In this document: piece by piece, positions 2,250-36,411 of the stretch
How positions within the stretch are numbered: position 1 is the stretch's first letter
Layout of the letters: each line of letters starts with the position of its first letter
NCBI GenBank assembly: GCA_002104935.1
Contig: MCGT01000035.1
Location: 186,001-250,000, forward strand
Direction: 5' to 3'
DNA from: Hesseltinella vesiculosa
Taxonomy: Eukaryota > Mucoromycota > Mucoromycetes > Mucorales > Cunninghamellaceae
Length of the DNA: 64,000 nucleotides
The notes under the pieces: generated by a model
Told to the model about the DNA's origin: nothing
Database searches by the model: none
The model's input: the letters and a program-made list of their open reading frames with translations, nothing else
Made by a program: the position numbers and the translations under genes

Positions 2250-2432
2250 TTAAAAACGTAGGGTAGAGAACGAAGCACGGTCAAACAGCGCCTGGATAGC
2301 ATTGCCCTTGGGGATCTTTTCTTCAACCTTCTTGGATCGAATGGGTTCCCTTGGAGCCTTCTCAGACGGAGCAGTAGGAGCTTTGGGAGCGACACGATTA
2401 GCAAAAATATTTAAAGAGTTCTTGAATGACAT
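2250..2432 (-). CDS. Small amphipathic-N-terminus protein (singleton, 60 aa)
   Basis: Intronless gene of 60 aa. It starts MSFKNSLNIFANRV, which keeps the hydrophobic positions 3, 7 and 10 and a basic residue at 13 as in the rest of the locus. It ends NAIQALFDRASFSTLRF, a diverged type 1 tail (compare VQDALVGRVSYFTLRA). The linker is rich in Pro, Lys and Glu rather than Ser. A TATA-like element (complement of TTTTATAT) lies near 2490-2497, about 60 bp upstream of the ATG, the usual spacing in this cluster. It lies just outside the large inverted repeat, so it is single copy here. Function unknown. That it is coding is supported by both conserved ends. Confidence 0.7.
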   Translation of the reverse strand: MSFKNSLNIFANRVAPKAPTAPSEKAPREPIRSKKVEEKIPKGNAIQALFDRASFSTLRF

Positions 2433-3734
2433 TATTATTTTAGGTGAGTTGAATTGATATTTTTTTTGGATTCAGGTTCCTCGCCTCCCTTTTTATATGT
2501 TTTGAGAGATCGATTTGCTGCCATTGTCTTGGTGCAACCAGTCGAGTTTGTCATCCGCCGAGATTCCCCCAGTCATTTGTCAGCCAGCACAGCCCCGCGG
2601 TGACCTCATTGGCCGATGCGTGAGTCAGCATAGAAACGCATCCAAGAGCTTCGTTTTCTCTAACAGTGATAGACAGAGTATTATTTGTGCTTGCAATTTA
2701 TCATCATTCACTTTATTCAACTCTATGATTTTTGCACTGATTATCTTACCTGACATCGAGTTTGAAAAAAAACGAACGCTGTGTAACGTCTTTGAACCGG
2801 GTTGATGAGAAATTTTGTATCAGTTCTCAACATGAACGATGATGATGCTCATAAGTAATCGATCAGTGAAGGACAGCCAGCCAACTTGGCATCCATAAGC
2901 TGAGAATAAAACAGGGCTCTTCACCTGTTGGATAAGGACCTAAAAATTATGCAAAAATTCAACTCTCCATCGATCCTCACCAAATTTTGCATGGCACTTG
3001 TATATGATATATACTGTCCTTGGCTAAGCTCCTAGACTTCTATCCTTACTTTCTGCTGGCCTACGCTCCGATAAAATCATACCTTCCCTGCTAAAATCTG
3101 ACTGGATAGGAGTAAATGCAGCAATGCTGACCAATTCCTGGAGCGTCTACTTGACGTCAAATTTTGCATGATGGTAATAGATCGTGGACAATGATATTAG
3201 GTAAAATATTAGCTGTGTTGGATCACAAGGTGGAGAATTAGAGATATGGCGAGTTGCACTGTCGGCAGTCAAATTTTGGCTGGATCGACTCTGTTGACGT
3301 CGTGGGATTTCACGCTTCAAAATGCTGGATTTCTAGGGTTCTTTTTTTTATACCTTGGATTTACCGGTATGAATGCTTTTATTGAGGGGGAGGTGTTCCT
3401 GGTGATTTTGCTAGTCTCAACTGCATGGTTCAAACAGTTTCACAACATCTCTCTTGTGACCCTTATTTTTTTTTTTTTTTGCGGAAACTTGCACGTTTTC
3501 CACATAAAAACCGCTGGCTCTTCCAAGGTGTAATACTTCTGAAAGAAAACCTGCTCACTCACTCTCTCGCACATATTGCGGGGTTTGCATTCACCTGAAT
3601 TTATTGATGTAAAGATGGGAAATCAATGAAGGGTACTAGGGTACTAGTAAAGGTATGATTGATCTGGTGGTATGAGATGAAATAAGCACGTTGGGAATGG
3701 ATGCTTGTATGAAGCTCGGGAGAGTCAAAAAAAA
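2433..3734. other. Promoter of the 60-aa gene, dispersed module and R repeat
   Basis: The first 200 bases are the upstream region of the minus-strand gene at 2250-2432 and contain the triplet-rich element CTCGGCGG (complement, near 2558). A copy of the dispersed module lies at about 2807-2890. From about 2930 to 3600 runs the R repeat, also found at about 9960-10640 and inverted at about 22000-22650 and 29040-29690. It ends in the 3' flank of the group B gene. Open frames inside R are not preserved in a gene-like way and I call none. Confidence 0.5.
2930..3600 (+). repeat. R repeat, copy 1
   Basis: First of four copies of a noncoding block of about 650 bp that sits downstream of each group B gene. 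The others are at about 9960-10640 (same orientation), 22000-22650 and 29040-29690 (inverted). Recurring landmarks are CAAATTTTGCATGGCAC, CAAATTTTGCATGATGG and a 13-16 base poly-T run before a GCGGAAAC motif. It travels with the B-A-C block, so it may simply be amplified intergenic DNA rather than a mobile element. I see no terminal repeats or transposase. Confidence 0.7.
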
Positions 3735-3926
3735 TCAAATGCGTTGGATGTAGAAGGACACTTGCTCGATCATGGCTTCCTGTACATCAGGGATTTGCTT
3801 GTCTTGAGCGGTTTCCTTGGAGCCCTTTTTGGATAGGGCATCTGGGCTGTTGTAAGAGGCAGCGGAAGCAGATGCCTCGGGGCTGATACGCTTAGAGAAA
3901 ATTTTGACGATCTTGTTTAAAGCCAT
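3735..3926 (-). CDS. Small protein, group B copy 1 (63 aa)
   Basis: Intronless, 63 aa. N-terminus MALNKIVKIFSKR puts L3, I6, V7 and F10 on one helix face and K5, K8, K12 and R13 on the other. A Ser/Ala-rich linker follows, then a charged stretch and the type 1 tail PDVQEAMIEQVSFYIQRI. The start is fixed by conservation of MALN across the cluster. It is divergent from the group A gene at 4610 with a 683 bp shared upstream region. The protein is identical to the copies at 21608 and 28673. Function unknown; an amphipathic membrane-binding helix is inference only. Confidence 0.8.
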   Translation of the reverse strand: MALNKIVKIFSKRISPEASASAASYNSPDALSKKGSKETAQDKQIPDVQEAMIEQVSFYIQRI

Positions 3927-4609
3927 TTCGTTTGATGGAAAGAGAGTCTTGGATTGATTGAAGAGATGAGTACTTGATATATTATATTTTTTTATCCAGA
4001 AGATCAGGCCCCTCTTTTAAACGAATCTGGACTGTGTTGCAACTGCGGCACAGCCAAGCAAAATTGGCTCAACTCAGACTCCGCCAAACGTTTGGCATCT
4101 AGCGATTTTTTTTTCAGGGACGAAGCTCTGGAGCAAATCAACACAGAAACAAACACTTTTGAGCGCCATCAGCTCCTAGTAATGAGGAAAACATACAATT
4201 TCTTTTAATTTGTATCAATTCCTCGATCTATGACGCCCTGGGGCCCCTGGCTGACATTGTTCTTCTCTCTAAGAAAGGCGCGGCAGCCAAGCGAATGGCT
4301 TCTTGGAAAATGTCATCACGGCCAAGTCAAATTGATTGCTTGAATGGTCATTGCATGTCAACTTTATTTTTTGTCCATTTTCAATGCCACCTCAGTTGTG
4401 GAGAACAATTTTTTTTCCAAGCATGCCAAGCATGCCGAGGTAGGACAAACAAGTCGGATCGGAGTTCAGCCAAGGCCAGGGTCGCCACACTTCGTCACAC
4501 AAGCACAAACCTCGGGTAGAAAAAAAAAAGTATAAAAGAAACTGGATCGAGTGACGAAGAAAGTAAAGAACATCATCTCAATACTTCAATTCAAGATACT
4601 TCTAAGAAA
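3927..4609. promoter_or_regulatory. Divergent B/A promoter region (4 copies in window)
   Basis: Shared upstream region of group B (leftward here) and group A (rightward). Further copies are at 10994-11660, 20941-21607 and 28006-28672. On the B side there is a GGCGGAGT box (complement; 21449-21456 in the third copy, 159 bp before the B start). On the A side are the tandem AAGCATGCCAAGCATGCCGAGG-like repeat (about 22 bases, two GCATGCC units), then CGGATCGGAGTTCAGCC, and TATAAAAG at 4531-4538, 79 bp before the A start. Protein factors are unknown. Confidence 0.6.
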
Positions 4610-4774
4610 ATGGCTCTGAACGATTTCGTTAACAGACTTACCAAGCGCTCTGGCTCTGCCTCTTCTGCCTCTTCTACCAAGACCAACAAGGACTCTGACA
4701 GCTCCACACGAGTCAAGAAGACATCCAAGCAACCTGCTTTGCTAGTCCATGTGCCTCTTCATACTCTCCACTAG
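4610..4774 (+). CDS. Small protein, group A copy 1 (54 aa)
   Basis: Intronless, 54 aa. It starts MALNDFVNRLTKR with L3, F6, V7 and L10 on the predicted hydrophobic face. The linker is Ser/Thr/Lys-rich, and the tail is QPALLVHVPLHTLH, which aligns without gaps to the type 1 tail QDALVGRVSYFTLR. This copy differs from the others by Ala for Gly near residue 17 and Asn for Lys near residue 26. TATAAAAG is at 4531-4538. An upstream in-frame extension seen in some copies is not conserved, so the MALN start is chosen. Function unknown. Confidence 0.75.
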   Translation: MALNDFVNRLTKRSGSASSASSTKTNKDSDSSTRVKKTSKQPALLVHVPLHTLH

Positions 4775-5388
4775 TCTCATTCTAACCAAAGTGCTATATC
4801 TCGGCACCAATGCCAAATCATCCTGACATACCCTCCCCCACGCATCACATCACATCATCAATCCTAATTTAATGACATTGCATCTTACCATCATAAATCC
4901 AAATAGACATGAACAATAAACTTCATAATAACGATTTTGATTAAAAAAAAAAGGAGTGTATAGGCAAACCAAAAAATGGATGCTGTCATTTTCCAGCACG
5001 CCGAGTAAAATGAAAGCGCAGCCTTTGAGAAGTCTACCTTCCTCTAGCATTGTAGCACCTTATATTGGAACCTTGATATTATATCTATTGAAACACCTCA
5101 ACATCCATCAGTTGTCTGCTATTCTTGACAGCAAGGGAGACATGTCATGATGACGTTTACGCGCAAACCAAAGACGCTTGTCTCTGAAAAAACTGGCTTT
5201 GATGGGCAAATGTGATTGAATCTCCGGTCTGAATCATTTAATAAGAAGCACCTTTCGGTTTTTCACGTATAGAATTAATGACATTGATTTATTTAAATGC
5301 AATGAATGAGATGATTGATGCAGTCATGATTGTTATGATGGTATGGAATGAATGCATGTGGTGATCTGTTTGCGACGAGGCAAAAAAA
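4775..5388. repeat. Convergent A/C 3' spacer (7 copies)
   Basis: Noncoding spacer of about 610-645 bp between the 3' ends of a group A and a group C gene. Other copies are 11826-12470, 13511-14155, 16781-17425, 18466-19096, 20131-20775 and 27210-27840. AATAAA signals serve each gene (on the A side AACAATAAACTTCAT near 4913; on the C side AAATAAAT in complement near 5290). Copies differ by small substitutions and indels, including a roughly 13-20 bp insertion around ATGCATGCAGTGG near the C gene in some copies. I see no further gene. Confidence 0.6.
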
Positions 5389-5553
5389 TTAAATGCGAGA
5401 GATGAAGTAAGGAACTTTGCCGACCAAGGCATCTTGCACTACAGGCGTTTTCTTGCCATGGTTGGAACTGCCAGAGTCTTTCTTGGGGGCAGAGGATGCA
5501 GACAAAGTGCTAGCGCGCTTGGCAAAGCTGTTCATGATCTTGTTCAAAGCCAT
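5389..5553 (-). CDS. Small protein, group C copy 1 (54 aa)
   Basis: Intronless, 54 aa. N-terminus MALNKIMNSFAKR, linker STLSASSAPKKDSGSSNHGK, tail PVVQDALVGKVPYFISRI (type 1). The TATATAAA box (complement) is at 5634-5641, 81 bp upstream. About 170 bp upstream lies GGCGGAGT followed by a CCG-N6-CGG element, both conserved in group C. It diverges from the group D gene at 6266 (712 bp apart). It is identical in its coding part to the mirror copy at 27045-27209. Function unknown. Confidence 0.8.
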   Translation of the reverse strand: MALNKIMNSFAKRASTLSASSAPKKDSGSSNHGKKTPVVQDALVGKVPYFISRI

Positions 5554-6265
5554 TTTTTGTTATGTCCTGAGTTGATTTCTTGAGTGGATGAGTGAATAAC
5601 GAATAAAAAAAGTAAACACCTCCTGCCAGCCTTTTTATATATTTTTGGAATTTTGTGATCCGCGACCTCGGCAGTTGGTTACGCTCAGACAAGACAAGCC
5701 GAAATCGCTCACTCTGAACTCCGCCAAAAATTTATAAGCTGGCAGAATTTTTTTTTCAGGGACTGAATCAGCATTAAAAACAAGTCAACGTGTTTACGCG
5801 TATTCTCAATGTTACCAATCTCGCATCTGCAAGCCTTCATGGATTTGGATTGGAAAAGCGAAACGAACACTGTCTTTGGGGTTTCTAATTTTCACATCAC
5901 AGGTCGGACTCATGGACAGATAAGGTCATATTCGAAAGTGCTAGTATTGCCCGGAAAATTCCCCCTTGATACCATTCTGTTTGAGCATGGGCTGCGTTGT
6001 TTTTGTTCATTGGCGTTGCTTCCGCACGGTTCTTTTTTCACCCAAGCATGCCGCAGGTGAGGCAAAACTCGGATCGGAGCTAAATCTGACAAATGCAATT
6101 CTCATTGGCGGAAACCAGCCAGGGCCACCGCAACTCGGGTGACACGAAAGCAAATTCCAAAAATATACATGGGCCGAGTGATATAAAAGAACATCCGATC
6201 GAAAAAAAAAAATTCTTCAACTCAATCATCTCAAGAACTCACATCAATACCCTCAGATATCAAAA
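5554..6265. promoter_or_regulatory. Divergent C/D promoter region (3 copies)
   Basis: Shared upstream region of group C (leftward) and group D (rightward). The inverted copies are 15906-16615 and 26333-27044. The C side holds TATATAAA, CCG-N6-CGG and GGCGGAGT. The D side holds a GCATGCCGCAGGTGAGGC element near 6047, CGGATCGGAG near 6071, ATTGGCGG and TATAAAAG at 6182-6189. In the 15.9 kb copy the D-side TATA is changed to TATAGAAG. Confidence 0.6.
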
Positions 6266-6424
6266 ATGGCTTTGATCAAGATCTTTAACAAGTCCTCCAA
6301 GCGTGCCAGCACTTTGTCTGCTGCCTCTTCATCCAAGAAAAGCTCTTCAAAGAATGCTCTGAAGCGCCCAGAGGTCCAAGATGCCATGATCGGTCAAGTT
6401 TCTTATTTCATCCTCCGCATTTAA
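6266..6424 (+). CDS. Small protein, group D copy 1 (52 aa)
   Basis: Intronless, 52 aa. It starts MALIKIFNKSSKR (hydrophobic L3, I4, I6, F7), has a very Ser/Lys-rich linker, and ends PEVQDAMIGQVSYFILRI (type 1 tail). TATAAAAG at 6182-6189 lies 77 bp upstream. Inverted copies are 15747-15905 and 26174-26332. The high Lys/Arg content makes the product strongly basic. Function unknown. Confidence 0.78.
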   Translation: MALIKIFNKSSKRASTLSAASSSKKSSSKNALKRPEVQDAMIGQVSYFILRI

Positions 6425-6718
6425 TGTCTTCACCCTCTTGACGTCTCCAATCTCGGTCTGTTTGGCAGGCTCATCACCCTCTCATACACTCAGCCATACA
6501 CAGGCACATCTCTTTTGTTCATAGCATTGCATTTATACACCCAAACCACATTGTATAGATAAATATCATCATTATTTTATTTTTGAACGCATGAAATAAG
6601 CATAGACGACAGTGACGCGGCTCATTTGCTTGACTTGGAAAAAGAAGGAAGCTAATGTAATTTTTTTAACGCGCTAAGCGAGACATCAAAGCGAATCTGG
6701 TGGTCATCAGCTTGTTTC

Positions 6719-6763
6719 AAGGACGCTTTAGTTGGTCGCGTCTCCTATTTCACGCTCCAAGCT
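6719..6763 (+). pseudogene. C-terminal remnant of a group G-like gene
   Basis: The 15 codons read KDALVGRVSYFTLQA, matching the end of the group G gene at 15041 (QDALVGRVSYFTLQA), but no start codon, N-terminal half or promoter precedes them and the stop codon is replaced by a poly-T run. DNA directly upstream (CAAGCTGATGACCACCAGAT in complement) is the same junction found at about 15459-15480. So a gene was cut by a rearrangement. A 3' flank with AATAAA near 6861 follows. Confidence 0.75.
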
Positions 6764-7747
6764 TTTTTTTTTTTTTTGATACCACTCTGCCTCGGCAGCT
6801 ATTCCTACAACATATCATCAGCTTGCCTTTACATACACATTCTTTGGACAACGTCATCTCAATAAAACGCACGCAAACATCTCTGATCATGTGCTACCTT
6901 TGTACAAAATTTGATGTGAACGGATGGCAATCGGGGGTTTGATGATTCTTTTGAGTATTTCTTTGGTACACGTTTGCTCCCTGAATCAAATTCTGACAAT
7001 CAAGAATACTAAAACAAACATTTGGGGCTGCTATTGGCGCGATCTGCAGAACGTATTTTGATCTGGTGCGAAGGTCAAGACCATCTTTGGCTTGAGAAAC
7101 TCGCCTTATGTTGTACCAAATTGACAAAAAAAAAAAAAAAGTGATGGCTTTGAGCAAAGCAAAAGAATGAACAATTACGGCACTCGGTATTCCCGCGTGA
7201 TCTCTCACCGCAGTACTAACCAAGCCGTACGCTGCTTATCTGCAGAGATCGAACGGGATCTGGATTTTTCAACGTCGTATGGCCGTAACATAAAAGTAAA
7301 AGTCACGTGACTTCCGCAATCTAATTCGGATGTTTTCGGCAACTGCGGCGGCCGAAATGCCGGAAGGATTGGGCCAATAGAATTATGCTAGTGAAGCAGA
7401 GCCATTCCTTTTTTGGTCTTGCCAACACTTTTCACTTCACAACCAAAGCATTCAGTAGCATAACCAATTGCTTCGGTTAGAAACCTTGTGCATAGACACT
7501 CATACGTACACGCATACACACACACACAAAGAAGGGAGACAATAGTTCCAGGAAGAGCTCTATCTGCTCTTGCGCCCACTTGTTTTTTTTTCTTAGTTTT
7601 TTTGCCTTTATTTAGATTGAAAATGTATATGCGATGAAGAATGGATGTGATGAAGTACTGTATATTTGATCTAAATATACGAGCAGGTAAAAGAAGGTGG
7701 GATGTGAATGGATACCATAGGCAATACGTCCTCTTTAAAATAAAAGA
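6764..7747. other. Intergenic DNA in the left arm, no gene called
   Basis: It contains the 3' flank of the truncated G-like gene, a poly-A run near 7126-7140 and a CA-rich run near 7500-7526 (mirror at about 24851-25834). A short frame at 7144-7170 begins MALSKAKE and stops after 8 codons. It resembles a family start but is too short to call. Confidence 0.4.
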
Positions 7748-7906
7748 CTAAGCACGCAGGGTAAAGTATGACACGCGCCCAGCCAAGGCATCTTGCACCA
7801 CAGGTCGATTGACTTGCTTGGCTTTGTTGGTGTTCTTATTGATGGATCCAGACACAGCTGATTCTGCAGCCTTGGTAAGCTTGTTAGAGACAGCGTTCAA
7901 AGGCAT
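7748..7906 (-). CDS. Small protein, group E copy 1 (52 aa)
   Basis: Intronless, 52 aa. It starts MPLNAVSNKLTK rather than MALN, keeps L3, V6 and L10, and lacks the Arg after Lys12. The linker is Asn/Lys-rich and the tail is PVVQDALAGRVSYFTLRA. TATAAAAG (complement) at 7977-7984 is 71 bp upstream. An in-frame upstream ATG extending the frame lies between the TATA box and this start, so the MPLN start is chosen on conservation. Divergent partner is the group F gene at 8527. Identical mirror copy at 24692. Confidence 0.75.
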   Translation of the reverse strand: MPLNAVSNKLTKAAESAVSGSINKNTNKAKQVNRPVVQDALAGRVSYFTLRA

Positions 7907-8526
7907 TTTGTTTTGTGATGGTGTTTTGAATATGAGGCAGGAATGTTTTTTTTTTTCGTGGCTAATCGTATGCCACCTTTTATACACTTTCCTTGTTTTA
8001 CAATTTTATGATCCTGTGTTACCTTTATTCATTCTCCATTTGTCATCTAGGCTCTTTGCCTTCACATTTGTCATCTGGGGTAGAAGAAAAAAAAACGCGA
8101 AGAAAAATGCTCGATACCAATGTTATTAAAAAGCACTAAAGTCATACCAAGTGCAACAGTAACAGCGTCAAACACCCCGCTATATCGAAGAAAATGATTG
8201 TTCTAGTTTAGATGAGTGTTTATGATGGAGTGGTGTTTTTTTTAAAAAAAAAAGAAGGATGATTTGGAATTTTATGAATATCGTCTTGCTCCTGTTTATT
8301 CAAAGGAAACATGATTTAATTACTCTGATCCCTTAAGCTTGTGAGTAGGCTGTGCCAGCTTACAAATAGGCGCTGTCCAAGTGACATAACAAATTTGGCT
8401 AGTTACACCGAGGTTCGGGATCGTATCAACCACCAAATATAAAAGAGAGATGATCAGCTCTTCCTGAAAAAAAAAACGCCCCAATTCATCCTCTCAACTT
8501 CAATAAATCAAGAATCTCTAAAAAAA
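7907..8526. promoter_or_regulatory. Divergent E/F promoter region (2 copies)
   Basis: 620 bp between group E (leftward) and F (rightward); the inverted copy is 24072-24691. E side: TATAAAAG in complement at 7977-7984. F side: TGTGCCAGCTTACAAATAGG near 8353, CCG-N5-CGG at 8408-8418 and TATAAAAG at 8438-8445. The TGTGCCAGCTTA element recurs upstream of group C and of the gene at 33709. Confidence 0.6.
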
Positions 8527-8697
8527 ATGGCATTGATCAAGATCATCAGCAAGTTCTCTAAGAATGGTAGCTCCAGCATTGTCACTTCTTCCAAGAATGA
8601 CTCAAACAATCTCACTCGACCCAACAACACGTCCAAAAAGCAAGTTAAAGAATCCCTAGAGGCTCGCTATCACTACTTTTCCATTGGGCGCATGTGA
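8527..8697 (+). CDS. Small protein, group F copy 1 (56 aa)
   Basis: Intronless, 56 aa. N-terminus MALIKIISKFSKN with L3, I6, I7 and F10; Ser/Asn-rich linker; type 2 tail LEARYHYFSIGRM, which keeps the R-x-x-YF spacing of type 1 tails. TATAAAAG at 8438-8445. The gene at 33709 shares the tail almost exactly but has a different linker. Mirror copy 23901-24071. Function unknown. Confidence 0.78.
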   Translation: MALIKIISKFSKNGSSSIVTSSKNDSNNLTRPNNTSKKQVKESLEARYHYFSIGRM

Positions 8698-10801
8698 TTA
8701 TTCTCATTTTTCAGCATACTCTGACCCAAGCTCTGCCATCCTTTTTAACATATACCACAAAACTCTGTCATACTTTTTACACTTGCATCCATAACAATAA
8801 ATAAGCTCAGCTACCGGTACATCAGTGATGATTTAAATCATAATCGCCCATGAGTGTGAGAGAAGGGAAGAGTTTTTTTTTTTATTACGAAATACAGCCC
8901 GTTAACACCCTTTACAAAATCAGACCATCAAGATACGGCACCATTAGCATTGGCGTTTTATCTCTCGTGAAAAAGATCGCAGGGAGTGAGAACGAATGTC
9001 GCTCAAGCCAAGGCATGCTTGGCTTTCTATTTGAGCTGTGAGTATTTTGCGCTGAGTTATGTTTAAGCTGTTGGGAGACATGCAATTTCAACCATTGCGT
9101 CACTTGTCACCTTTTTTACTCGTAATGGAAATTTGGGATGCATTGATTGTGAGCAAAATTGTGCACAGGGATTTTGATCATATCGCCTGGGGTCCGGTAC
9201 TGATGAAAATAGACATTTTTCGTTTTTTATTGAGAATCCAGATGATGTTCAAAATAACATGGCAAAATTTGCTGGGCAACATTCACCAATTTTTTCAGCA
9301 CCATCATCATTCAAACTGGTGCGTTCCCCGTACAAATTTTCACACTGATCCAATCATTCGTAAAGATGGTATGCTAGTATTGCTTTGCTTTACTTTTTTT
9401 TTGAAAGTGAAAAAGAATTATAGACTGATATATCAACCCCCACAATGCACCCATCGTCAGACGGGCACGCCAGGTAAATTTAGTATCAGAATCAGCAAAA
9501 AGTTAAGCTCGATATTAAGAAAATTAATTGCATGAAGCTTAAAGTCCATCCACCTCCAAAACATTTCAAAGGTCCAAATCCCTTTAGATCACCGATTAAG
9601 TCATCAAGGCTTGAATTCACCATGGACATCGCTCATCAAACCACAATTTCAAATTTGAGGCCGATCGGGGAGGTGTGAATATGGCCTGGTTTTTCGCTGG
9701 AATCGCTTTTTTCGTCCGTTTTCTCTCCGTTTTGGACGTGTTTTTAGCTGGGGATTCGGAATTTAAATCAATGATCTTCAAACTTTGGCTGGGCAACATT
9801 ACTCAAATCGATTGATTTTTTTCAGTATCATTAGCTTTGTCATTTTCCTGTGTTAAACAAATTTATGAGCTGGATCCTGTTAAGTTAATACTCGACTATG
9901 ACGTTTTTTGAATTTTTCAAAATCCCTGGTCCCCTTTGGGCATTTTTGGTCGAGAACACAGGGACCCGAAAATTAAGCAAAAAATCAAATCTCCATCAAT
10001 CCTCACCAAATTTTGCATGGCACTTGTATATGATATATACTGTCCTTGGCTAAGCTCCTAGACTTCTATCCTTACTTTCTGCTGGCCGACGCTCCGATAA
10101 AATCATACCTTCCCTGCTAAAATCTGACTGGATAGGAGTAAATGCAGCAATGCTGGCCGATGCCTGGAGCGTCTACTTGACGTCAAATTTTGCATGATGG
10201 TAATAGATCGTGGACAATGATATTAGGCAAAATATTAGCTGTGTTGGATCACAAGGTGGAGAATTAGAGATATGGCGAGTTGCAATGTCGGCAGTCAAAT
10301 TTTGGCTGGATCGACTATGTTGTAGCCCCCGTCTCACTCATTCCTTAATTCATGCTTTCCACGTCGTGGGATTTCACGCTTCAAAATGCTGGATTTCTAA
10401 CGTTCGTTATTTTATACCTTGGATTTACCGGTATGATTGCTTTTATTGAGGGGGAGGTGTTTCCTGGTGATTTGTTAGCCTCAACTGCATGGGGCGAAAC
10501 AATTTCACAACATCTCGGTTGTGACCCTTATTTTTTTTTTTTTTTTGCGGAAACCTGCACGTTTTCCACATAAAAACCGCTGGCTCTTCCAAAGTGTAAT
10601 ACTTCAGAAAGAAAACATGCTCACGCACTCTCTCGCACATATTGCGGGGTTTGCATTCACCTGAATTTATTGATGTAAAGATGGGAAATCAATGAAGGGT
10701 ACTAGGGTACTAGTAAAGGTATGATTGATCTGGTGGTATGAGATGAAATAAGCACGTTGGGAATGGATGCTTGTATGAAGCTCGGGAGAGTCAAAAAAAA
10801 A
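8698..10801. other. Intergenic block: F 3' flank, dispersed modules, R repeat copy 2
   Basis: 8698-9050 is the 3' flank of group F (AATAAATAA near 8796) and mirrors 23556-23900 closely. 9060-9950 holds two minus-oriented copies of the dispersed module (about 9220-9345 and 9738-9830) and is visibly diverged from its mirror at 22.65-23.55 kb. 9960-10640 is R repeat copy 2, nearly identical to 22.0-22.65 kb. The longest frame (plus strand, 9059 on) has no family resemblance and is not kept in the mirror, so I do not call it. Confidence 0.5.
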
Positions 10802-10993
10802 TCAAATGCGTTGGATGTAGAAGGACACTTGCTCGATCATGGCTTCCTGTACATCAGGGGATTTGCTTGTCTTGAGCGGTTTCCTTGGAGCCCTTTTTGG
10901 ATAGGGCATCTGGCTGTTGTAAGAGGCAGCGGAAGCAGATGCCTCGGGGCTGATACGCTTAGAGAAAATTTTGACGATCTTGTTTAAAGCCAT
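10802..10993 (-). CDS. Small protein, group B copy 2 with doubly shifted linker (63 aa)
   Basis: Intronless, 63 aa. It has the same N-terminus (MALNKIVKIFSKR) and tail (PDVQEAMIEQVSFYIQRI) as the other group B genes, but residues about 28-46 differ completely. One G is missing at the CATCTGGCTG site (near 10910) and one G is gained in the CAGGGG run (near 10857), so only the linker is read in another frame and the end is restored. The alternate frame has no stop. The mirror at 21608 is unshifted. It diverges from group A at 11661. See findings. Confidence 0.75.
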   Translation of the reverse strand: MALNKIVKIFSKRISPEASASAASYNSQMPYPKRAPRKPLKTSKSPDVQEAMIEQVSFYIQRI

Positions 10994-11660
10994 TTCGTTT
11001 GATGGAAAGAGAGTCTTGGATTGATTGAAGAGATGAGTACTTTGATATATTATATTTTTTATCCAGAAGATCAAGCCCCTCTTTTAAACGAATCTGGACT
11101 GTGTTGCAACTGCGGCACAGCCAAGCAAAATTGGCTCAACTCAGACTCCGCCAAACGTTTGGCATCTAGCGATTTTTTTTCAGGGACGAAGCTCTGGAGC
11201 AAATGAACACAGAAACAAACACTTTTGAGCGCCATCAGCTGCTATTAATAAGGAAAACATACAATTTCTTTTAATTTGTATCATCTATGACGCCCTGGCT
11301 GACATTGTTCTTCTCCCTAAGAAAGGCGCGGCAGCCAAGCGAATGGCTTCTTGGAAAAAGTCATCACGGTCAAGTCAAAGTTGAATGCTTAAATGGTCAT
11401 TGCGTGTCAACTTTATTTTTTGTCCATTTTCAATGCCACCGCAGTTGTGGAGAGCAATTTTTTTTTCCAAGCATGCCAAGCATGCCGAGGTAGGACAAAC
11501 AAGTCGGATCGGAGTTCAGCCAAGGCCAGGGTCGCCACACTTCGTCACACGAGCACAAACCTCAGGTAGAAAAAAAAAAAGTATAAAAGAAACTGGATCG
11601 AGTGACGAAGAAAGTAAAGAACATCATCTCAATACTTCAATTCAAGATACTTCTAAGAAA

Positions 11661-11825
11661 ATGGCTCTGAACGATTTCGTTAACAGACTTACCAAGCGCT
11701 CTGGCTCTGGCTCTTCTGCCTCTTCTACCAAGACCAAGAAGGACTCTGACAGCTCCACACGAGTCAAGAAAGCATCCAAGCAACCTGCTTTGCTAGTCCA
11801 TGTGCCTCTCCATACTCTCCACTAG
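11661..11825 (+). CDS. Small protein, group A copy 2 (54 aa)
   Basis: Intronless, 54 aa, start MALNDFVNRLTKR, tail QPALLVHVPLHTLH, with KKASKQ before the tail (other copies have KKTSKQ). TATAAAAG at 11582-11589. The frame happens to stay open upstream as far as 11385, but that extension runs through the TATA box and promoter, so it is not taken as coding. Mirror copy 20776-20940 shares the Ala variant. Function unknown. Confidence 0.75.
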   Translation: MALNDFVNRLTKRSGSGSSASSTKTKKDSDSSTRVKKASKQPALLVHVPLHTLH

Positions 11826-12470
11826 TCTCATTCTAACCAAAGTGCTATATCTCGGCACCAATGCCAAATCATCCTGACATACCCTCCTCCACACATCACA
11901 TCACATCATCAATCCTAATTTAATGACATTGCATCTTACCATCATAAATCCAAACAGACATGAACAATAAACTTCATAATAACGATTTTGATTAAAAAAA
12001 AAAAAGGAGTGTATAGGCAAATCAAAAAATGGATGCTGTCATTTTCCAGCACGCCGAGTAAAATGAAAGCGCAGCCTTTGAGAAGTCTACCTTCCTCTGC
12101 ATTGTAGCACCTTATATTGGAACTTTGATATTATATCTATTGAAACACCTCAATATTCATCAGTTGTCTGCTATTCTTGACAGCAAGGGAGACATGTCAT
12201 GATGACGTTTACGCGCAAACCAAAGACGCTTGTCTCTGAACAAATAGCTTTGATGGGCAAATATGATTGAATCTCCGGTCTGCTCTCATTTAATTTTGAA
12301 TCATTTAATAAGAAGCACCTCTCGATTTTTCACGTATAGAATTAATGACATTGAATTTATTTAAATGCAATGAATGAGATGATTGATGCAGTCATGATTG
12401 TTATGATGGTATGGAATGCATGCAGTGGTATGAATGCATGTGGTGATCTGTTTGCAACGAGGCAACAAAA

Positions 12471-12635
12471 TTAAATGCGAGAGATGAAGTAAGGAACTTT
12501 GCCGACCAAGGCATCTTGCACTACAGGTGTTTTCTTGCCATGGTTGGAACTGCCAGAGTCTTTCTTGGGGGCAGAGGATGCAGACAAAGTGCTAGCGCGC
12601 TTGGCAAAGCTGTTCATGATCTTGTTCAAAGCCAT
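12471..12635 (-). CDS. Small protein, group C copy 2 (54 aa)
   Basis: Intronless, 54 aa, MALNKIMNSFAKR start and DALVGKVPYFISRI end. TATATAAA in complement at 12716-12723. It diverges from group A at 13340 through the C/A promoter. It differs from copy 1 by silent changes such as the codon in the KKTP stretch. Mirror copy 19966-20130. Confidence 0.78.
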   Translation of the reverse strand: MALNKIMNSFAKRASTLSASSAPKKDSGSSNHGKKTPVVQDALVGKVPYFISRI

Positions 12636-13339: not shown

Positions 13340-13510
13340 ATGGCTCTGAACGATTTCGTTAACAGACTTACCAAGCGCTCTGGCTCTGGCTCTGCCTCTT
13401 CTGCCTCTTCTACCAAGACCAAGAAGGACTCTGACAGCTCCACACGAGTCAAGAAGACATCCAAGCAACCTGCTTTGCTAGTCCATGTGCCTCTCCATAC
13501 TCTCCACTAG
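13340..13510 (+). CDS. Small protein, group A copy 3 (56 aa)
   Basis: Intronless, 56 aa. As the other group A genes but with two extra residues in the Ser-rich linker (RSGSGSASSASS), from a 6-base repeat-unit gain. TATAAAAG at 13261-13268. Tail QPALLVHVPLHTLH unchanged. The 17426 copy carries the same two-residue insertion, while the mirror-arm copy at 19097 does not. Function unknown. Confidence 0.75.
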   Translation: MALNDFVNRLTKRSGSGSASSASSTKTKKDSDSSTRVKKTSKQPALLVHVPLHTLH

Positions 13511-24691: not shown

Positions 24692-24850
24692 ATGCCTTTG
24701 AACGCTGTCTCTAACAAGCTTACCAAGGCTGCAGAATCAGCTGTGTCTGGATCCATCAATAAGAACACCAACAAAGCCAAGCAAGTCAATCGACCTGTGG
24801 TGCAAGATGCCTTGGCTGGGCGCGTGTCATACTTTACCCTGCGTGCTTAG
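24692..24850 (+). CDS. Small protein, group E copy 2 (52 aa)
   Basis: Intronless, 52 aa, identical protein to 7748. TATAAAAG 24614-24621. The frame is open from 24611, but that extension overlaps the TATA box, so the MPLN start at 24692 is used. Confidence 0.75.
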   Translation: MPLNAVSNKLTKAAESAVSGSINKNTNKAKQVNRPVVQDALAGRVSYFTLRA

Positions 24851-26173: not shown

Positions 26174-26332
26174 TTAAATGCGGAGGATGAAATAAGAAAC
26201 TTGACCGATCATGGCATCTTGGACCTCTGGGCGCTTCAGAGCATTCTTTGAAGAGCTTTTCTTGGATGAAGAGGCAGCAGACAAAGTGCTGGCACGCTTG
26301 GAGGACTTGTTAAAGATCTTGATCAAAGCCAT
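26174..26332 (-). CDS. Small protein, group D copy 3 (52 aa)
   Basis: Intronless, 52 aa, as 6266. The TATA element is the normal TATAAAAG (complement, 26409-26416), unlike the 15747 copy. Diverges from group C at 27045. Confidence 0.78.
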   Translation of the reverse strand: MALIKIFNKSSKRASTLSAASSSKKSSSKNALKRPEVQDAMIGQVSYFILRI

Positions 26333-27044
26333 TTTTGATATCTGAGGGTATTGATGTGAGTTCTTGAGATGATTGAGTTGAAGAATTTTTTTTTTTCGAT
26401 CGGATGTTCTTTTATATCACTCGGCCCATGTATATTTTTGGAATTTGCTTTCGTGTCACCCGAGTTGCGGTGGCCCTGGCTGGTTTCCGCCAATGAGAAT
26501 TGCATTTGTCAGATTTAGCTCCGATCCGAGTTTTGCCTCACCTGCGGCATGCTTGGGTGAAAAAAGAACCGTGCGGAAGCAACGCCAATGAACAAAAACA
26601 ACGCAGCCCATGCTCAAACAGAATGGTATCAAGGGGGAATTTTCCGGGCAATACTAGCACTTTCGAATATGACCTTATCTGTCCATGAGTCCGACCTGTG
26701 ATGTGAAAATTAGAAACCCCAAAGACAGTGTTCGTTTCGCTTTTCCAATCCAAATCCATGAAGGCTTGCAGATGCGAGATTGGTAACATTGAGAATACGC
26801 GTAAACACGTTGACTTGTTTTTAATGCTGATTCAGTCCCTGAAAAAAAAATTCTGCCAGCTTATAAATTTTTGGCGGAGTTCAGAGTGAGCGATTTCGGC
26901 TTGTCTTGTCTGAGCGTAACCAACTGCCGAGGTCGCGGATCACAAAATTCCAAAAATATATAAAAAGGCTGGCAGGAGGTGTTTACTTTTTTTATTCGTT
27001 ATTCACTCATCCACTCAAGAAATCAACTCAGGACATAACAAAAA

Positions 27045-27209
27045 ATGGCTTTGAACAAGATCATGAACAGCTTTGCCAAGCGCGCTAGCACTTTGTCTGC
27101 ATCCTCTGCCCCCAAGAAAGACTCTGGCAGTTCCAACCATGGCAAGAAAACGCCTGTAGTGCAAGATGCCTTGGTCGGCAAAGTTCCTTACTTCATCTCT
27201 CGCATTTAA
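27045..27209 (+). CDS. Small protein, group C copy 7 (54 aa)
   Basis: Intronless, 54 aa, mirror of 5389. TATATAAA 26957-26964 with the upstream GGCGGAGT and CCG-N6-CGG elements kept. Convergent with group A at 27841. Confidence 0.78.
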   Translation: MALNKIMNSFAKRASTLSASSAPKKDSGSSNHGKKTPVVQDALVGKVPYFISRI

Positions 27210-27840
27210 TTTTTTTGCCTCGTCGCAAACAGATCACCACATGCATTCATTCCATACCATCATAACAATCATGACTGCATCAATCATCTCATTCATTGCA
27301 TTTAAATAAATCAATGTCATTAATTCTATACATGAAAAACCGAGAGGTGCTTCTTATTATATGATTCAAAATTAAATGAGAGCAGACCGGAGATTCAATC
27401 ATATTTGCCCATCAAAGCCAATTTTTTCAGAGACAAGCGCCTTTGGTTTGCGCGTAAACGCCACCATGACATGTCTCCCTTGCTGTCAAGAATAGCAGAC
27501 AACTGATGGATGTTGAGGTGTTTCAATGGATATAATATCAAAGTTCCAATATAAGGTGCTACAATGCAGAGGAAGGTAGACTTCTCAAAGGCTGCGCTTT
27601 CATTTTACTCGGCGTGCTGGAAAATGACAGCATCCATTTTTTGATTTGCCTATACACTCCTTTTTTTTTTTTAATCAAAATCGTTATTATAAAGTTTATT
27701 GTTCATGTCTGTTTGGATTTATGATGGTAAGATGCAATGTCATTAAATTAGCATTGATGATGTGATGTGATGCGTGGGGGAGGGTATGTCAGGATATCTT
27801 GGCATTGGTACCGAGATGTAGCACGTTGGTCAGAATGAGA

Positions 27841-28005
27841 CTAGTGGAGAGTATGGAGAGGCACATGGACTAGCAAAGCAGGTTGCTTGGATGTCTTCTT
27901 GACTCGTGTGGAGCTGTCAGAGTCCTTCTTGGTCTTGGTAGAAGAGGCAGAAGAGCCAGAGCCAGAGCGCTTGGTAAGTCTGTTAACGAAATCGTTCAGA
28001 GCCAT
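27841..28005 (-). CDS. Small protein, group A copy 7 (54 aa)
   Basis: Intronless, 54 aa, KKTSKQ form. Mirror of 4610 by position but lacking its two substitutions, so the arms are not identical here. TATAAAAG (complement) 28077-28084. Diverges from group B at 28673. Confidence 0.75.
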   Translation of the reverse strand: MALNDFVNRLTKRSGSGSSASSTKTKKDSDSSTRVKKTSKQPALLVHVPLHTLH

Positions 28006-28672
28006 TTTCTTAGAAGTATCTTGAATTGAAGTATTGAGATGATGTTCTTTACTTTCTTCGTCACTCGATCCAGTTTCTTTTATACTTTTTTTTTTTCTAC
28101 CTGAGGTTTGTGCTCGTGTGACGAAGTGTGGCGACCCTGGCCTTGGCTGAACTCCGATCCGACTTGTTTGTCCTACCTCGGCATGCTTGGCATGCTTGGA
28201 AAAAAAAATTGTTCTCCACAACTGCGGTGGCATTGAAAATGGACAAAAAATAAAGTTGACATGCAATGACCATTTAAGCATTCAACTTTGACTTGGCCGT
28301 GATGACTTTTTCCAAGAAGCCATTCGCTTGGCTGCCGCGCCTTTCTTAGGGAGAAGAACAATGTCAGCCAGGGCGTCATAGATGATACAAATTAAAAGAA
28401 ATTGTATGTTTTCCTTATTAATAGCAGCTGATGGCGCTCAAAAGTGTTTGTTTCTGTGTTCATTTGCTCCAGAGCTTCGTCCCTGAAAAAAAATCGCTAG
28501 ATGCCAAACGTTTGGCGGAGTCTGAGTTGAGCCAATTTTGCTTGGCTGTGCCGCAGTTGCAACACAGTCCAGATTCGTTTAAAAGAGGGGCTTGATCTTC
28601 TGGATAAAAAATATAATATATCAAAGTACTCATCTCTTCAATCAATCCAAGACTCTCTTTCCATCAAACGAA

Positions 28673-28864
28673 ATGGCTTTAAACAAGATCGTCAAAATTT
28701 TCTCTAAGCGTATCAGCCCCGAGGCATCTGCTTCCGCTGCCTCTTACAACAGCCCAGATGCCCTATCCAAAAAGGGCTCCAAGGAAACCGCTCAAGACAA
28801 GCAAATCCCTGATGTACAGGAAGCCATGATCGAGCAAGTGTCCTTCTACATCCAACGCATTTGA
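28673..28864 (+). CDS. Small protein, group B copy 4 (63 aa)
   Basis: Intronless, 63 aa, identical protein to 3735 and 21608. MALN start chosen over the in-frame upstream ATG at 28592. It is the outermost gene of the right arm. Confidence 0.8.
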   Translation: MALNKIVKIFSKRISPEASASAASYNSPDALSKKGSKETAQDKQIPDVQEAMIEQVSFYIQRI

Positions 28865-31254
28865 TTTTTTTTTGACTCTCCCGAGCTTCATACAAGCATC
28901 CATTCCCAACGTGCTTATTTCATCTCATACCACCAGATCAATCATACCTTTACTAGTACCCTAGTACCCTTCATTGATTTCCCATCTTTACATCAATAAA
29001 TTCAGGTGAATGCATACCCTGCAATATGTGCGAGAGAGTGAGTGAGCAGGTTTTCTTTCTGAAGTATTACACCTTGGAAGAGCCAGCGGTTTTTATGTGG
29101 AAAACGTGCAGGTTTCCGCAAAAAAAAAAAAAAAAATAAGGGTCACAAGAGAGATGTTGTGCAACTGTTTGAACCATGCAGTTGAGGCTAGCAAAATCAC
29201 CAGGAAACGCCTCCCCCTCAATAAAAGCATTCATACCGGTAAATCCAAGGTATAAAATAACGAACGTTAGAAATCCAGCATTTTGAAGCGTGAAATCCCA
29301 CGACGTCAACAGAGTCGATCCAGCCAAAATTTGACTGCCGACACTGCAACTCGCCATATCTCTAATTCTCCACCTTGTGATCCAACACAGCTAATATTTT
29401 GCCTAATATCATTGTCCACGATCTATTACCATCATGCAAAATTTGACATCAAGTAGACGCTCCAGGCATCGGTCAGTATTGCTGCATTTACTCCTATCCA
29501 GTCAGATATTAGCAGGGAAGGTATGATTTTATCGGAGCGTAGGCCAGCATAAAGTAAGGATAGAAGTCTAGGAGCTTAGCCAAAGACAGGATATATCATA
29601 TACAAGTGCCATGCAAAATTTGGTGAGGATTGATGGAGATTTGATTTTTTGCTTAATTTTCGGGTCCCTGTGTTCTCGACCAAAAATGCCCAGGGACCGC
29701 CAGGGATTTTGAAAATTCAAAAACCGTCATAGATCGAGGTTAATCTAACAGATCCAGCTCATAATTTGTTTAACTACAGAAAATGACAAAAGCTAATGAT
29801 ACTGAAAAAATCACATCGATTGAGTAAGGTTGCCCAGCCAAAGTTTGACGAATCATGATTTACAATCTCCGAATCCCCAGCTAAAAACACGTCAAAACGA
29901 GAAAAACGACGAAAAAAGCGATTCCAGCGAAAAACCAGGCCATATTCAACCTCCGCCGATCGGCCTCAAATTTGACATTGTGGTTGATGAGCGATGTCCA
30001 TGGTGAAATCTCAGCCTTGATAACTTAATGGTGATCTAAAGGGAATTTGGACCTTTGAAATGTTTTGGAGGTGGATGGACTTTAAGCTTCATGAATTGAT
30101 TTTTAATATCGAGGCTTGCTTTTGCTGATTCTGATGCTAATTACCCTGCGTGCACCGTCTGGAATCGATGGGTGCATTGTGGGGATCGAATATATCAGTA
30201 CTAATTCTTTTTCTCATTTCAAAAAAAAAAAGCAAAAGCAAATACTACATACCATTTTTGAGTGATTGGATCATTGAGAAATTTTGCACGGAGCCTAAGT
30301 GTGTGATAGATGACAATGCTGAAAAAATCAGGTCGATGGTGAAGGTTGCCCAGCCAATTTGTTATCAGTTTTGTTATGATGCGTCAGAGTCTCCAGCTAA
30401 ACAAATGTAAAAAACAGAATATCCCCAGGGGACCCAAGGCGATTCTGATAGAAAATCACTGTGCAAGATTGGTCTAGCCAATTCATCAAAATTGTAAACT
30501 ATTTTTTTGCAAAAATATCCCAGTGGGCAGCTTGTGGGCCGGTCGGAGTTGGTGGTTTGCACCTAGAGGGCAGCAGTGGCTCGGATCAAAATGGGATTTG
30601 ACATGGGTGCAAGATGATATGAAGAGATAGATACTAAAATTTCATACTAAAAGCACAAACATGTCAGGGTCACCAGCCAAAAAAAAACAAACTGGGAGTT
30701 GAGCTCACAAACGGAAAAACGATTTTCATTGGTTGATTCATCTTTTTTTTTTTTTGGAATTCTTCGTTTTCCTGGCTTCCATTTTTATTCAGGTTCGTGT
30801 CCTTGTGTTACCTGTGAAAGTGCCATTGGCTCTAGGATCTACCCCGATATTGACTATCCCTGGAATTTGCTTGGCACCATGGAATCTTTCTTTGATGCTA
30901 ATCATCAAAAAATATCTCATCTTGGGAGTAGCTTTATCGTTTGGTACATTCCTCATTGAAGAAAATACGTCCGAGGAAGCGGACATGTGCAAGTCTATTT
31001 TTACTATTACGCTGCTTGCACTTTTTTTCTGTCACCGTGAATGCATTGTGACCCTTATTCCTGGATCCACTGCGCCAGCTGATAATGCTTGGCGGAGTCT
31101 GAGATGCGGTGTTTCCGCTTGGCTAGAGTGTCGCAGTACTGCCCAGACTTGGTTAGAGGGGTTTTCGTCATTGTATAAAAGATAATGTGCTAAAACGAGA
31201 TTCCAGAAAAAAATAATTTCAATCCATTTACAAGTCCAGAATTTGAAAGCAATT
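28865..31254. other. Arm end: R repeat copy 4, dispersed modules, promoter of the 31255 gene
   Basis: B 3' flank, R repeat (about 29040-29690), dispersed modules at about 29790-29890 and 30280-30410, then unique DNA. Upstream of the next gene are GGCGGAGT at 31091-31098, CGCAGTACTGCCCAG near 31131 and TATAAAAG at 31174-31181. A 150-codon plus-strand frame at 30733-31185 covers this promoter and looks spurious. Confidence 0.5.
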
Positions 31255-31425
31255 ATGGCATTGAACAAGGTCGTTAACAAATTTGCCAAACGTGTCAACC
31301 CCCAGCCTGCAACCTCCTCCGACGACAAGGTACTTCGCAAGTCAGTCGAAGGCAAAAAGGAACCCAGCGTACCAGTGGTCCAAGATGCCCTGCTTGTCCG
31401 CTCTGCGTGCAACACTCCCCATTGA
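31255..31425 (+). CDS. Small protein, type 3 tail (singleton, 56 aa)
   Basis: Intronless, 56 aa. N-terminus MALNKVVNKFAKR (L3, V6, V7, F10), linker with Pro and Asp/Glu, tail PVVQDALLVRSACNTPH. The tail has the QxALLV start, the 14-residue length and the terminal His of the group A tail (QPALLVHVPLHTLH). TATAAAAG at 31174-31181, 81 bp upstream. Function unknown. Confidence 0.75.
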   Translation: MALNKVVNKFAKRVNPQPATSSDDKVLRKSVEGKKEPSVPVVQDALLVRSACNTPH

Positions 31426-35286: not shown

Positions 35287-35505
35287 TTAAGCACCAGTGT
35301 TGGTTACGTCCTTGCCGGGATTTCGGTAGTAGAGGCGAGCACCCATGGGGTCAAGGTACTGACCGACAGTATCAGGGTGACGGGTGGTGCGCATGGGGTC
35401 TTTCAGAAACTTGGTTTCGGCCAAACGGTCGTTGACTTGAGAGCCATTGCTATGGGCAGGAGTGACACGCTTGGTCCATTTGTTCAAGAGGGATTCAAAG
35501 GCCAT
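35287..35505 (-). CDS. DPM-repeat small protein, NTGA tail (72 aa)
   Basis: Intronless, 72 aa. N-terminus MAFESLLNKWTKRVTP matches the common amphipathic motif (F3, L6, L7, W10, K12, R13). Then FLKDPMRTTRHPD, VGQYLDPMGA and a PGKDVTNTGA end. TATAAAAG (complement) 35590-35597, 85 bp upstream. It links the NTGA genes to the rest of the cluster by its N-terminus. Function unknown. Confidence 0.75.
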   Translation of the reverse strand: MAFESLLNKWTKRVTPAHSNGSQVNDRLAETKFLKDPMRTTRHPDTVGQYLDPMGARLYYRNPGKDVTNTGA

Positions 35506-36177
35506 GGTAGAAATTTAGAAGTTCTTCTTGGAAGAGAGGAGGGTAGATCGAATTGATTTGGTTTTTTTTTCATGTCGCAACAAGATGCGCTTTTATACAG
35601 AGGAAAATGGGATCGCAGCAGAAACGTTTATCCGGAAAGAAGGAGTGCAGAAAATGAGCCAAGCCCGCTGGTGGATCAACGTTTTTTCGACACCCTTTGT
35701 GATACCTATATTTTCTTTGTCATGCAATTGCCGTGCATCATTCCTCGCAAAATAATGCGCAGATGACTACTCATTGGGCGGCCAATGAAGGCTTGGTGAC
35801 AAAGATTCGCGACAAGGAACATCATCTATTGATATTAAGCAGCATTGGCGCAGCTGGCCGACTTTTTCATACTCTCTTTATTATTTCATACTGAGCAGCA
35901 ACATGCCTTTTTATGGTCAATACTGCTATGTCTTTTTATTGTTTTGTGATTTCCGTAACAATTCTACCAAGCCATTAGAACGCCCGGGAAGGGAAGCGGC
36001 AACGAAAAAAAAAAAAAAAAAAATAGACCGAAAAATTAGCGCAAAATTAAAAATAGGAAAGCAAGGTAAGATCTAGTTTATTGGTATCGATGGATAAGAA
36101 TATTAGAATAGATAGTGGTTAAGTAATGAAGGATGGAGATATGTGATATGCAGTGTGGTTTTTAAAAGTGAAACGCT
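35506..36177. other. Upstream region of 35287 gene and 3' flank of 36178 gene
   Basis: TATAAAAG (complement) at 35590-35597 serves the 35287 gene. A poly-A run lies near 36005-36023. TTTATTGG (complement of AATAAA) near 36078 marks the 3' flank of the 36178 gene. No gene supported. Confidence 0.4.
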
Positions 36178-36411
36178 TTAGGCGCCAGTGTTGGTGCAGT
36201 CATAGCCAGAGTGATATGATGTGCGAGCACCCATGGGATCCACAAATCGGCCAACGACGTCAGGGCTTCGGCTTGTGCGGAAAGGGTCCTTCAAAAACTT
36301 GGTGTTAGCAGACATGGGAGCAATGCCTTGGGATTCGTGAGTGGAATTGCTGGGAGAAGAGTTGGGAGTCATGCGTTTGGCAAGCTTCTTGAAAAAGGTG
36401 TTGATGGCCAT
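36178..36411 (-). CDS. DPM-repeat small protein, NTGA tail (77 aa)
   Basis: Intronless, 77 aa. It starts MAINTFFKKLAKRMTP (I3, F6, F7, L10, K12, R13), has a Ser/Asn-rich linker, then FLKDPFRTSRSPDVVGRF, VDPMGART and the end YDCTNTGA. TATAAAAG (complement) 36488-36495, 77 bp upstream. Upstream lies CCTCGGTTAAAGG (complement, near 36520). Last small gene of the locus before housekeeping genes begin. Function unknown. Confidence 0.75.
   Translation of the reverse strand: MAINTFFKKLAKRMTPNSSPSNSTHESQGIAPMSANTKFLKDPFRTSRSPDVVGRFVDPMGARTSYHSGYDCTNTGA

What the first reader, a model, noticed from the sequence alone, without database searches (positions are those of the whole stretch)
2250..36411. 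Amplified locus of at least 34 microprotein genes of an unrecognised family
Thirty-four intronless genes of 52-114 codons lie in 34 kb, each with conserved start and tail, most with a TATA box 60-105 bp upstream. Most are too short for usual gene finders. I recognise no named family. The products are basic, Ser/Lys-rich and lack a signal peptide or Cys pattern, unlike known secreted effectors or hydrophobins. That the family is new is inference; the gene structure is seen directly.
Basis: partly seen in the sequence, partly recalled or inferred. Interest (0 to 1): 0.93.

Follow-up and report, generated by a model that had tools for sequence, protein, structure and literature searches.

The report
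Mirror-image array of fungal microprotein genes
A stretch of a mould's genome holds 34 copies of tiny, apparently working protein genes of a family without a name, multiplied as back-to-back pairs and then mirrored; three of them belong to a small-protein family found across its order of fungi, and what any of them do is unknown.

Summary
Window 2250-36411 carries 34 intact small ORFs of 52-114 codons. The contig is from the Mucorales fungus Hesseltinella vesiculosa. The 34 are 15 types and 20 distinct proteins. Most copies come from an inverted repeat (2936-14324 against 29667-18297, 97.5% identical) built of divergent gene pairs, 620-750 bp between start codons (14 of 14). Twelve more genes were found elsewhere in the genome: 46 in all, a lower bound.

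They look real and translated. The mirror arms differ at 0.27% of coding and 1.38% of non-coding sites (p=6e-6). Codon usage leans toward TEF1/histone genes without reaching them.

"Unrecognised family" is partly right: no Pfam, NCBIfam or PDB relative, and the 31 'core' members were found only in Hesseltinella. But three edge genes belong to an unnamed Mucorales-wide family with tail DPMRT...DPMG...TNTGA. The core shares the head of that family; a shared tail failed its test.

Function is inferred: abundant, disordered, cationic microproteins whose amphipathic N-terminal helix binds membranes, amplified for dosage.

The parts
2250..2432 (-). type S gene, 60 aa
3735..3926 (-). type K gene, 63 aa (further copies 10802-10993 -, 21608-21799 +, 28673-28864 +; the copy at 10802 has two compensating 1-bp indels that replace 18 linker residues)
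4610..4774 (+). type D gene, 54 aa (further copies 11661 +, 13340 +, 17426 -, 19097 -, 20776 -, 27841 -)
5389..5553 (-). type M gene, 54 aa (further copies 12471 -, 14156 -, 16616 +, 18301 +, 19966 +, 27045 +)
6266..6424 (+). type I gene, 52 aa (further copies 15747 -, 26174 -)
6656..6865 (+). ORF with a tail-only family fragment, a decayed copy; its mirror is 25733-25942 -
   Evidence: E 3.6e-4 each
7748..7906 (-). type P gene, 52 aa (further copy 24692-24850 +)
8527..8697 (+). type Q gene, 56 aa (further copy 23901-24071 -)
15041..15205 (+). type F gene, 54 aa, single copy, in the spacer between the mirror arms
2936..14324 (+). left arm of the inverted repeat
   Evidence: 97.5% identical to the right arm over 11456 columns, 135 mismatches, 75 gap openings
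18297..29667 (-). right arm of the inverted repeat
31255..31425 (+). type V gene, 56 aa
32294..32464 (+). type N gene, 56 aa
32797..32958 (-). type A gene, 53 aa
33709..33876 (+). type B gene, 55 aa
34235..34579 (-). d3, 114 aa, DPM/TNTGA subfamily with extra DPM repeats; no TATA box found
35287..35505 (-). d1, 72 aa, DPM/TNTGA subfamily
36178..36411 (-). d2, 77 aa, DPM/TNTGA subfamily

Best explanation
SHOWN: a multi-copy gene family under protein-level selection. Its units are divergent pairs of intronless microprotein genes with start codons 620-750 bp apart; a block of such pairs was mirrored into an inverted repeat with arms of about 11.4 kb. PARTLY SHOWN: the core branched from the Mucorales-wide DPM/TNTGA small-protein family, keeping the N-terminal helix and ending in other tails. 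INFERRED: each core protein is an abundant cytosolic, mostly disordered, cationic polypeptide. Residues 2-15 form a basic amphipathic helix that lies on an acidic membrane; the Ser/Lys linker is a spacer; the short tail meets a partner. TATA promoters, a recurring GGCGGA element and high copy number supply dosage. My odds: real coding family about 0.95; descent from the DPM family about 0.7; membrane tether plus dosage about 0.35.
For: Selection: mirror arms differ at 5 of 1862 coding and 130 of 9442 non-coding sites (Fisher p 6e-6); 4 of the 5 coding changes are third-position; coding indels are one 6-bp event and one compensating 1-bp pair, against 72 non-coding events. The C4 pair is 81-87% identical to the window pair in coding parts, 74% in the shared promoter, 62-64% in the 3' flanks. 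Codon usage, one gene per type (25), is 16.3 sd above a base-composition null and 10.5 sd above a background-gene null. Promoters: GGCGGA in 11 of 26 types, shuffle mean 1.1, maximum 5. Helix: mean moment of residues 2-15 in 20 core types 0.547 against 0.295 +/- 0.032, 0 of 2000 shuffles; linker and tail show none. Link to DPM: hhalign P 2.9e-5 over 27 N-terminal columns, probability 74%; head score 16.2 against a maximum of 10.8 in 60 column shuffles; a core-only profile finds d2 at 6.4e-5 and d1 at 1.1e-3.
Against: No transcript, peptide or localisation data. Family scores stay well below the histone and TEF1 references in codon usage (-0.24 pooled against 0.34 to 0.46). The tail link between core and DPM failed: 0.6 against a shuffle mean of 1.8. 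The core profile reaches E<0.01 for 1 of 45 DPM proteins, and the head-only hhalign probability is 3.5%. Amphipathic heads of related proteins are not independent and could converge; several heads of other species are weak (0.12-0.29). AlphaFold models are low-confidence (mean pLDDT 57 and 58.5). Public models P0005 and P0006 give two members other tails.
Confidence: 0.4

Rival explanations
1. The basic amphipathic head is a mitochondrial targeting sequence, and the rest is a short peptide delivered into mitochondria.
For: Core heads are amphipathic and carry a net charge of +1 to +5 in the first 16 residues.
Against: No presequence predictor or cleavage-site test was run; Mucor-type heads (MGFMKRFF...) are short and less amphipathic.
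Confidence: 0.2
2. Released cationic peptides used against competitors or between hyphae, exported without a signal peptide or freed on lysis; copy number and variety reflect conflict.
For: Basic (net +2 to +11 in 20 core types), helical head, many copies, core found only in one species.
Against: No secretory core. Selection is mainly conserving, not diversifying; two of 14 pairs at 0.70-0.77 are the nearest to relaxed.
Confidence: 0.15
3. LEA-like or nucleic-acid-binding bulk proteins of spores or stress, in which the head is a weak-affinity basic segment and no membrane is involved.
For: Small, basic, Ser/Lys-rich, mostly disordered by low-confidence models; strong-looking promoters.
Against: Amphipathicity of the head is specific and beyond its composition; no Pfam match.
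Confidence: 0.2
4. Not genes: ORFs carried along in an amplified non-coding repeat, or an assembly artefact.
For: Copies lie in a nearly identical inverted repeat with a dispersed repeat inside beside DNA with transposon genes.
Against: Coding sites are conserved about five-fold over flanks; codon bias; nine single-copy types in the window, five more types to its left and members on five other contigs; the arms differ by 135 mismatches and 75 gap openings.
Confidence: 0.03

Closest known systems
Unnamed DPM/TNTGA small proteins of Mucorales (for example BCR42DRAFT_404996 of Absidia repens, BC940DRAFT_307793 of Gongronella butleri), all called hypothetical
   Same: d1, d2 and d3 are members by head, linker and tail. 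The 31 core proteins share the head (M..xxIxKKLxKRxSP-like) and the Ser-rich linker.
   Different: Core proteins lack the DPMRT...DPMG...TNTGA tail and are more basic; the amplified array was seen only in Hesseltinella, though unannotated ORFs of other species could not be searched.
Divergent pairs of small, highly expressed genes such as histone gene pairs (kind of arrangement, recalled)
   Same: Back-to-back small genes with one shared upstream region, in several near-identical copies.
   Different: Unrelated proteins, and whole pairs are mirrored in an 11-kb inverted repeat.
Lineage-specific tandem expansions of small secreted effectors and hydrophobins (recalled)
   Same: Clusters of small, fast-changing genes.
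   Different: No secretory hydrophobic core and no Cys pattern here.

Membership tests
Mucorales DPM/TNTGA family (d1, d2, d3) | tail K[YF]xxDPMRT..PDxVGx[FY]xDPM...DxTNTGA | tested here: met
   All three carry it, with small departures (d2 DPF for the first DPM; d3 extra DPM repeats)
Mucorales DPM/TNTGA family (31 core genes) | same tail | tested here: not met
   Absent by alignment; profile test of core tails against DPM tails failed, 0.6 against shuffle mean 1.8 and maximum 5.2
Mucorales DPM/TNTGA family (31 core genes) | homologous N-terminal head | tested here: inconclusive
   For: 16.2 against maximum 10.8 of 60 shuffles; d2 6.4e-5, d1 1.1e-3. Against: 1 of 45 DPM proteins at E<0.01 with the core profile, hhalign head probability 3.5%
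Any Pfam-A or NCBIfam family, or a protein of solved structure | significant match | tested here: not met
   Pfam best E 0.076 (A1, 15 proteins; A2, 17) and 0.0067 in 1 of 37 (A4); NCBIfam best 0.023 (A2) and 0.032 (A4); PDB none for A4, one at 0.96 for A2
Hydrophobins / cysteine-rich effectors | conserved Cys pattern | tested here: not met
   4 Cys in 20 core types, 2 in 6 DPM types
Secreted effectors | signal peptide | tested here: inconclusive
   Highest 10-residue hydrophobicity in the first 30 residues is 1.52 over 25 types; no predictor was available
Mitochondrial precursor proteins | basic amphipathic presequence with cleavage and import | tested here: inconclusive
   Amphipathic basic head met; cleavage and import not testable

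The most novel reading that the evidence does not exclude
An undescribed Mucorales-wide family of membrane-tethered, disordered microproteins, in which one lineage replaced the ancestral tail and then built a palindromic array of divergent pairs (34 genes in the window, 39 on the contig), so that a microprotein became a bulk component of the cell; the mirror lets copies stay alike while linkers drift.
Probability: 0.3. Interest if true: 0.75.

Novelty: new variant of a known kind. Interest (0 to 1): 0.56.

Why it matters
Few of these genes came back from the protein database under a public name, and those on this contig that did have altered starts or tails, so a class of fungal microproteins may be overlooked by gene finders. 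The order-wide DPM/TNTGA signature gives a clear handle for testing function in a tractable relative. The palindrome, with arms 2.5% apart and coding sequence held, is a natural system for how duplication, inversion and selection act on tiny genes, including one copy whose linker was swapped by two frame shifts while head and tail stayed.

Tried and rejected
(1) Assembly artefact: rejected because the arms differ. I recall that this genome was assembled from long reads; I did not see that paper. Passages of PMC8298701 only list the species, and passages of PMC8070225 name strain NRRL 3301 and GCA_002104935.

(2) Homology of the core tail QDALVGRVSYF with DPMGARxSYH looked good by eye and failed the profile test.

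(3) An RNA explanation: Rfam finds only two 5S rRNA genes in 1-37000.

(4) Structure: two low-confidence models; no fold search was made, since such models give meaningless matches.

(5) Literature, seen as search listings only: Hesseltinella, Mucorales small proteins (48), motif strings and locus tags (49), Mucor small ORFs (77), Mucoromycota microprotein (78, no paper). I saw nothing on this family in these listings, which cover open-licence PMC papers; one search listed 20 of 22 papers and 15 of 32.

(6) dN/dS: 16 hand-picked, non-independent pairs. Left out of the count: one with saturated dS and the frame-shifted K copy (0.77). One kept pair rests on two changes only, and many dS exceed 1.

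(7) Codon reference: three intended histone H4 frames were not found, and the GAPDH piece kept in the reference scores -0.37, no better than background.

(8) Eight promoter motifs were tried after looking at the sequences, so the GGCGGA result is post hoc; TATA-like anchors for the A-tract count were also chosen by eye.
Full report
ORIGIN. The window is G000:C29:186001-250000 of a 27.05-Mb, 85-contig genome. Database proteins named DM01DRAFT_... [Hesseltinella vesiculosa] lie on contigs of 282398 and 761110 bases, the lengths of C29 and C4. Hesseltinella vesiculosa is in Mucorales, Cunninghamellaceae.

OBSERVATION. Iterated profile search over 2127 window ORFs gives 33 full family ORFs and 2 tail-only fragments at E<0.01, none outside 2250-36468; with d3 there are 34. 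TATA[AT]A is present in 28 of 34 at -65 to -105, AATAAA in 31 of 34 within 206 bp. Type K has TTTAAAAG instead.

ARCHITECTURE. Order: S- K- D+ M- I+ P- Q+ K- D+ M- D+ M- F+ I- M+ D- M+ D- M+ D- K+ Q- P+ I- M+ D- K+ V+ N+ A- B+ d3- d1- d2-. From K at 3735 to K at 28673 the strands alternate strictly. All 14 divergent neighbours in the window have 620-750 bp between them; from the start positions the two divergent pairs left of the window have 689 and 754 bp and the C4 pair 577. The stretch 2936-14324 is 97.5% identical to the reverse complement of 18297-29667. The 34 genes are 15 types, 20 distinct proteins, 21 distinct DNA sequences; nine types (S, F, V, N, A, B, d1, d2, d3) are single-copy in the window. 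A dispersed repeat sits inside: query 9540-10330 matches itself, three other array places at 93-96%, and 40 places elsewhere at 68-79%, some of which may be pieces of one copy; only 40 of 85 candidates were scored.

MORE MEMBERS. Five further types lie at C29:171.8-179.9 kb, a P/Q-like divergent pair on C4:437.8-438.7 kb, two near-identical genes on C1:834.6 and 837.3 kb, and three DPM genes on C67, C2 and C45. Total 46, a lower bound, since the genome search scores only its best candidates and nine protein queries cannot reach every divergent member (protein queries on this genome: seven in all).

ARE THEY GENES? Between the mirror arms coding sites differ at 5 of 1862 and non-coding at 130 of 9442 (Fisher p 6e-6); four of the five coding changes are at third positions; coding indels are one 6-bp event and one compensating pair of 1-bp events in the K copy at 10802, against 72 non-coding events, 55 of these of length 1 modulo 3. 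Between the C4 pair and the window pair, coding parts are 81% and 87% identical, the shared promoter 74%, the 3' flanks 62% and 64%. Omega in 14 usable hand-picked pairs is 0.18-0.46 in 12 and 0.70 and 0.77 in two; the frame-shifted K pair (0.77) and a saturated pair are not counted. Codon usage, one gene per type (25 types), lies 16.3 sd above a base-composition null and 10.5 sd above a background-gene null in the direction of TEF1 and histones. Of 31 sequences scored singly, 30 have z above 1 against base composition and 27 reach 2; C67d is at -0.6; 27 score above the best of seven background genes (-0.38), but none comes near the histone and TEF1 references (0.34 to 0.46), and the GAPDH piece itself scores -0.37.

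PROMOTERS. GGCGGA occurs within 320 bp upstream in 11 of 26 types, 10 of them at -127 to -188, against a shuffle mean of 1.1 (maximum 5 in 300) and 6.5% of other window segments; eight motifs were tried. An A6 tract starts 20-34 nt after the TATA-like box in 16 of 26 types; 4.2% of background 20-mers hold one, and 0 of 5 TATAAAAG sites elsewhere have it, a small control. If transcription starts there, the mRNAs would have A-rich leaders; starts were not mapped.

PROTEIN. The core head (residues 2-15) is amphipathic: mean moment 0.547 in 20 types against 0.295 +/- 0.032, 0 of 2000 shuffles; linker p 0.14 and tail p 0.90 show none. Six DPM types of this genome (0.461, p 0.0005) and 17 relatives of other species (0.381 against 0.266, p 0.0005) also exceed shuffles on average, though several are as low as 0.12-0.29. 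Core net charge is +2 to +11. No strongly hydrophobic segment was found. AlphaFold is low-confidence, with helices at 4-9 and 39-53 in type F and at 3-12 in d2. The K copy at 10802 replaces 18 linker residues and keeps both ends: a hint, from one copy, that the linker is a spacer.

RELATIVES. The core profile finds 6 proteins at E<=1 among 5.8 billion, all on this genome's contigs. The DPM profile finds 37: 22 carry an organism name, 4 of them Hesseltinella and 18 from Absidia, Chlamydoabsidia, Gongronella, Mucor, Parasitella, Cunninghamella, Pilaira, Choanephora, Apophysomyces, Circinella and Lichtheimia; 15 carry none (one is the window's own d3). A second round adds Mucor hiemalis, Syncephalastrum, Mycotypha and a second Circinella umbellata protein. 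A species or genus of each of these genera was looked up and all lie in Mucorales. The search needs shared 5-residue words, so more distant relatives could be missed, and unannotated small ORFs of other Mucorales could not be searched.

LINK BETWEEN CORE AND DPM. Head: hhalign P 2.9e-5, probability 74%; head-only score 16.2 against at most 10.8 in 60 shuffles, though with probability 3.5%; core-only profile finds d2 at 6.4e-5 and d1 at 1.1e-3, not d3, and 1 of 45 database DPM proteins at E<0.01 against 0 of 900 shuffled ones. Tail: not supported. d1 and d2 have the TATA box plus A tract, d3 has no TATA box. I put common descent at about 0.7.

ANNOTATION. Three publicly named core proteins came back. 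Two, on this contig (P0005, P0006), keep the head but end in other tails, as if spliced across the tail; d2's model (P0009) has another start. The tail that P0005 loses is shared by Q, C4Q and B, so I think these models are wrong, but RNA data could show otherwise.

VERDICT. A real, selected microprotein array with a striking layout; only partly a new family; function open, with membrane-binding head, spacer and tail as my best guess.

Noticed in passing
window 7172-7290 (-) and 25309-25427 (+): Two 5S rRNA genes (98.5 bits each) lie inside the array and were copied with the mirror arms.
   Followed up: no
window 9540-10330 and its array copies: A dispersed repeat, with 40 further matches elsewhere in the genome at 68-79% identity, sits inside the array and was amplified with it; it might have mediated the duplications.
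   Followed up: partly
L010 4712-8545 (C29:154712-158545): Retroelement ORFs with reverse transcriptase (PF00078, E 1.3e-25) and a weak RNase H match; by eye the downstream ORF looks like a tyrosine recombinase.
   Followed up: partly
L011 8022-8525 and L013 1217-1804: ORFs that look like ends of TnpB/Fanzor-type nucleases: the first matches PF07282 at E 3.6e-4, below its cut-off; the second had no Pfam match and is judged by eye.
   Followed up: partly
promoters of 16 of 26 family types: An A tract starts 20-34 nt after the TATA-like box; if mRNAs start there they would have templated A-rich leaders.
   Followed up: partly
window 10802-10993: A K copy in which two compensating 1-bp indels replace 18 linker residues while head and tail stay in frame.
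   Followed up: yes
P0005 and P0006 (public models on this contig): Public gene models end in tails other than the conserved ones, as if an intron removed the true tail.
   Followed up: partly
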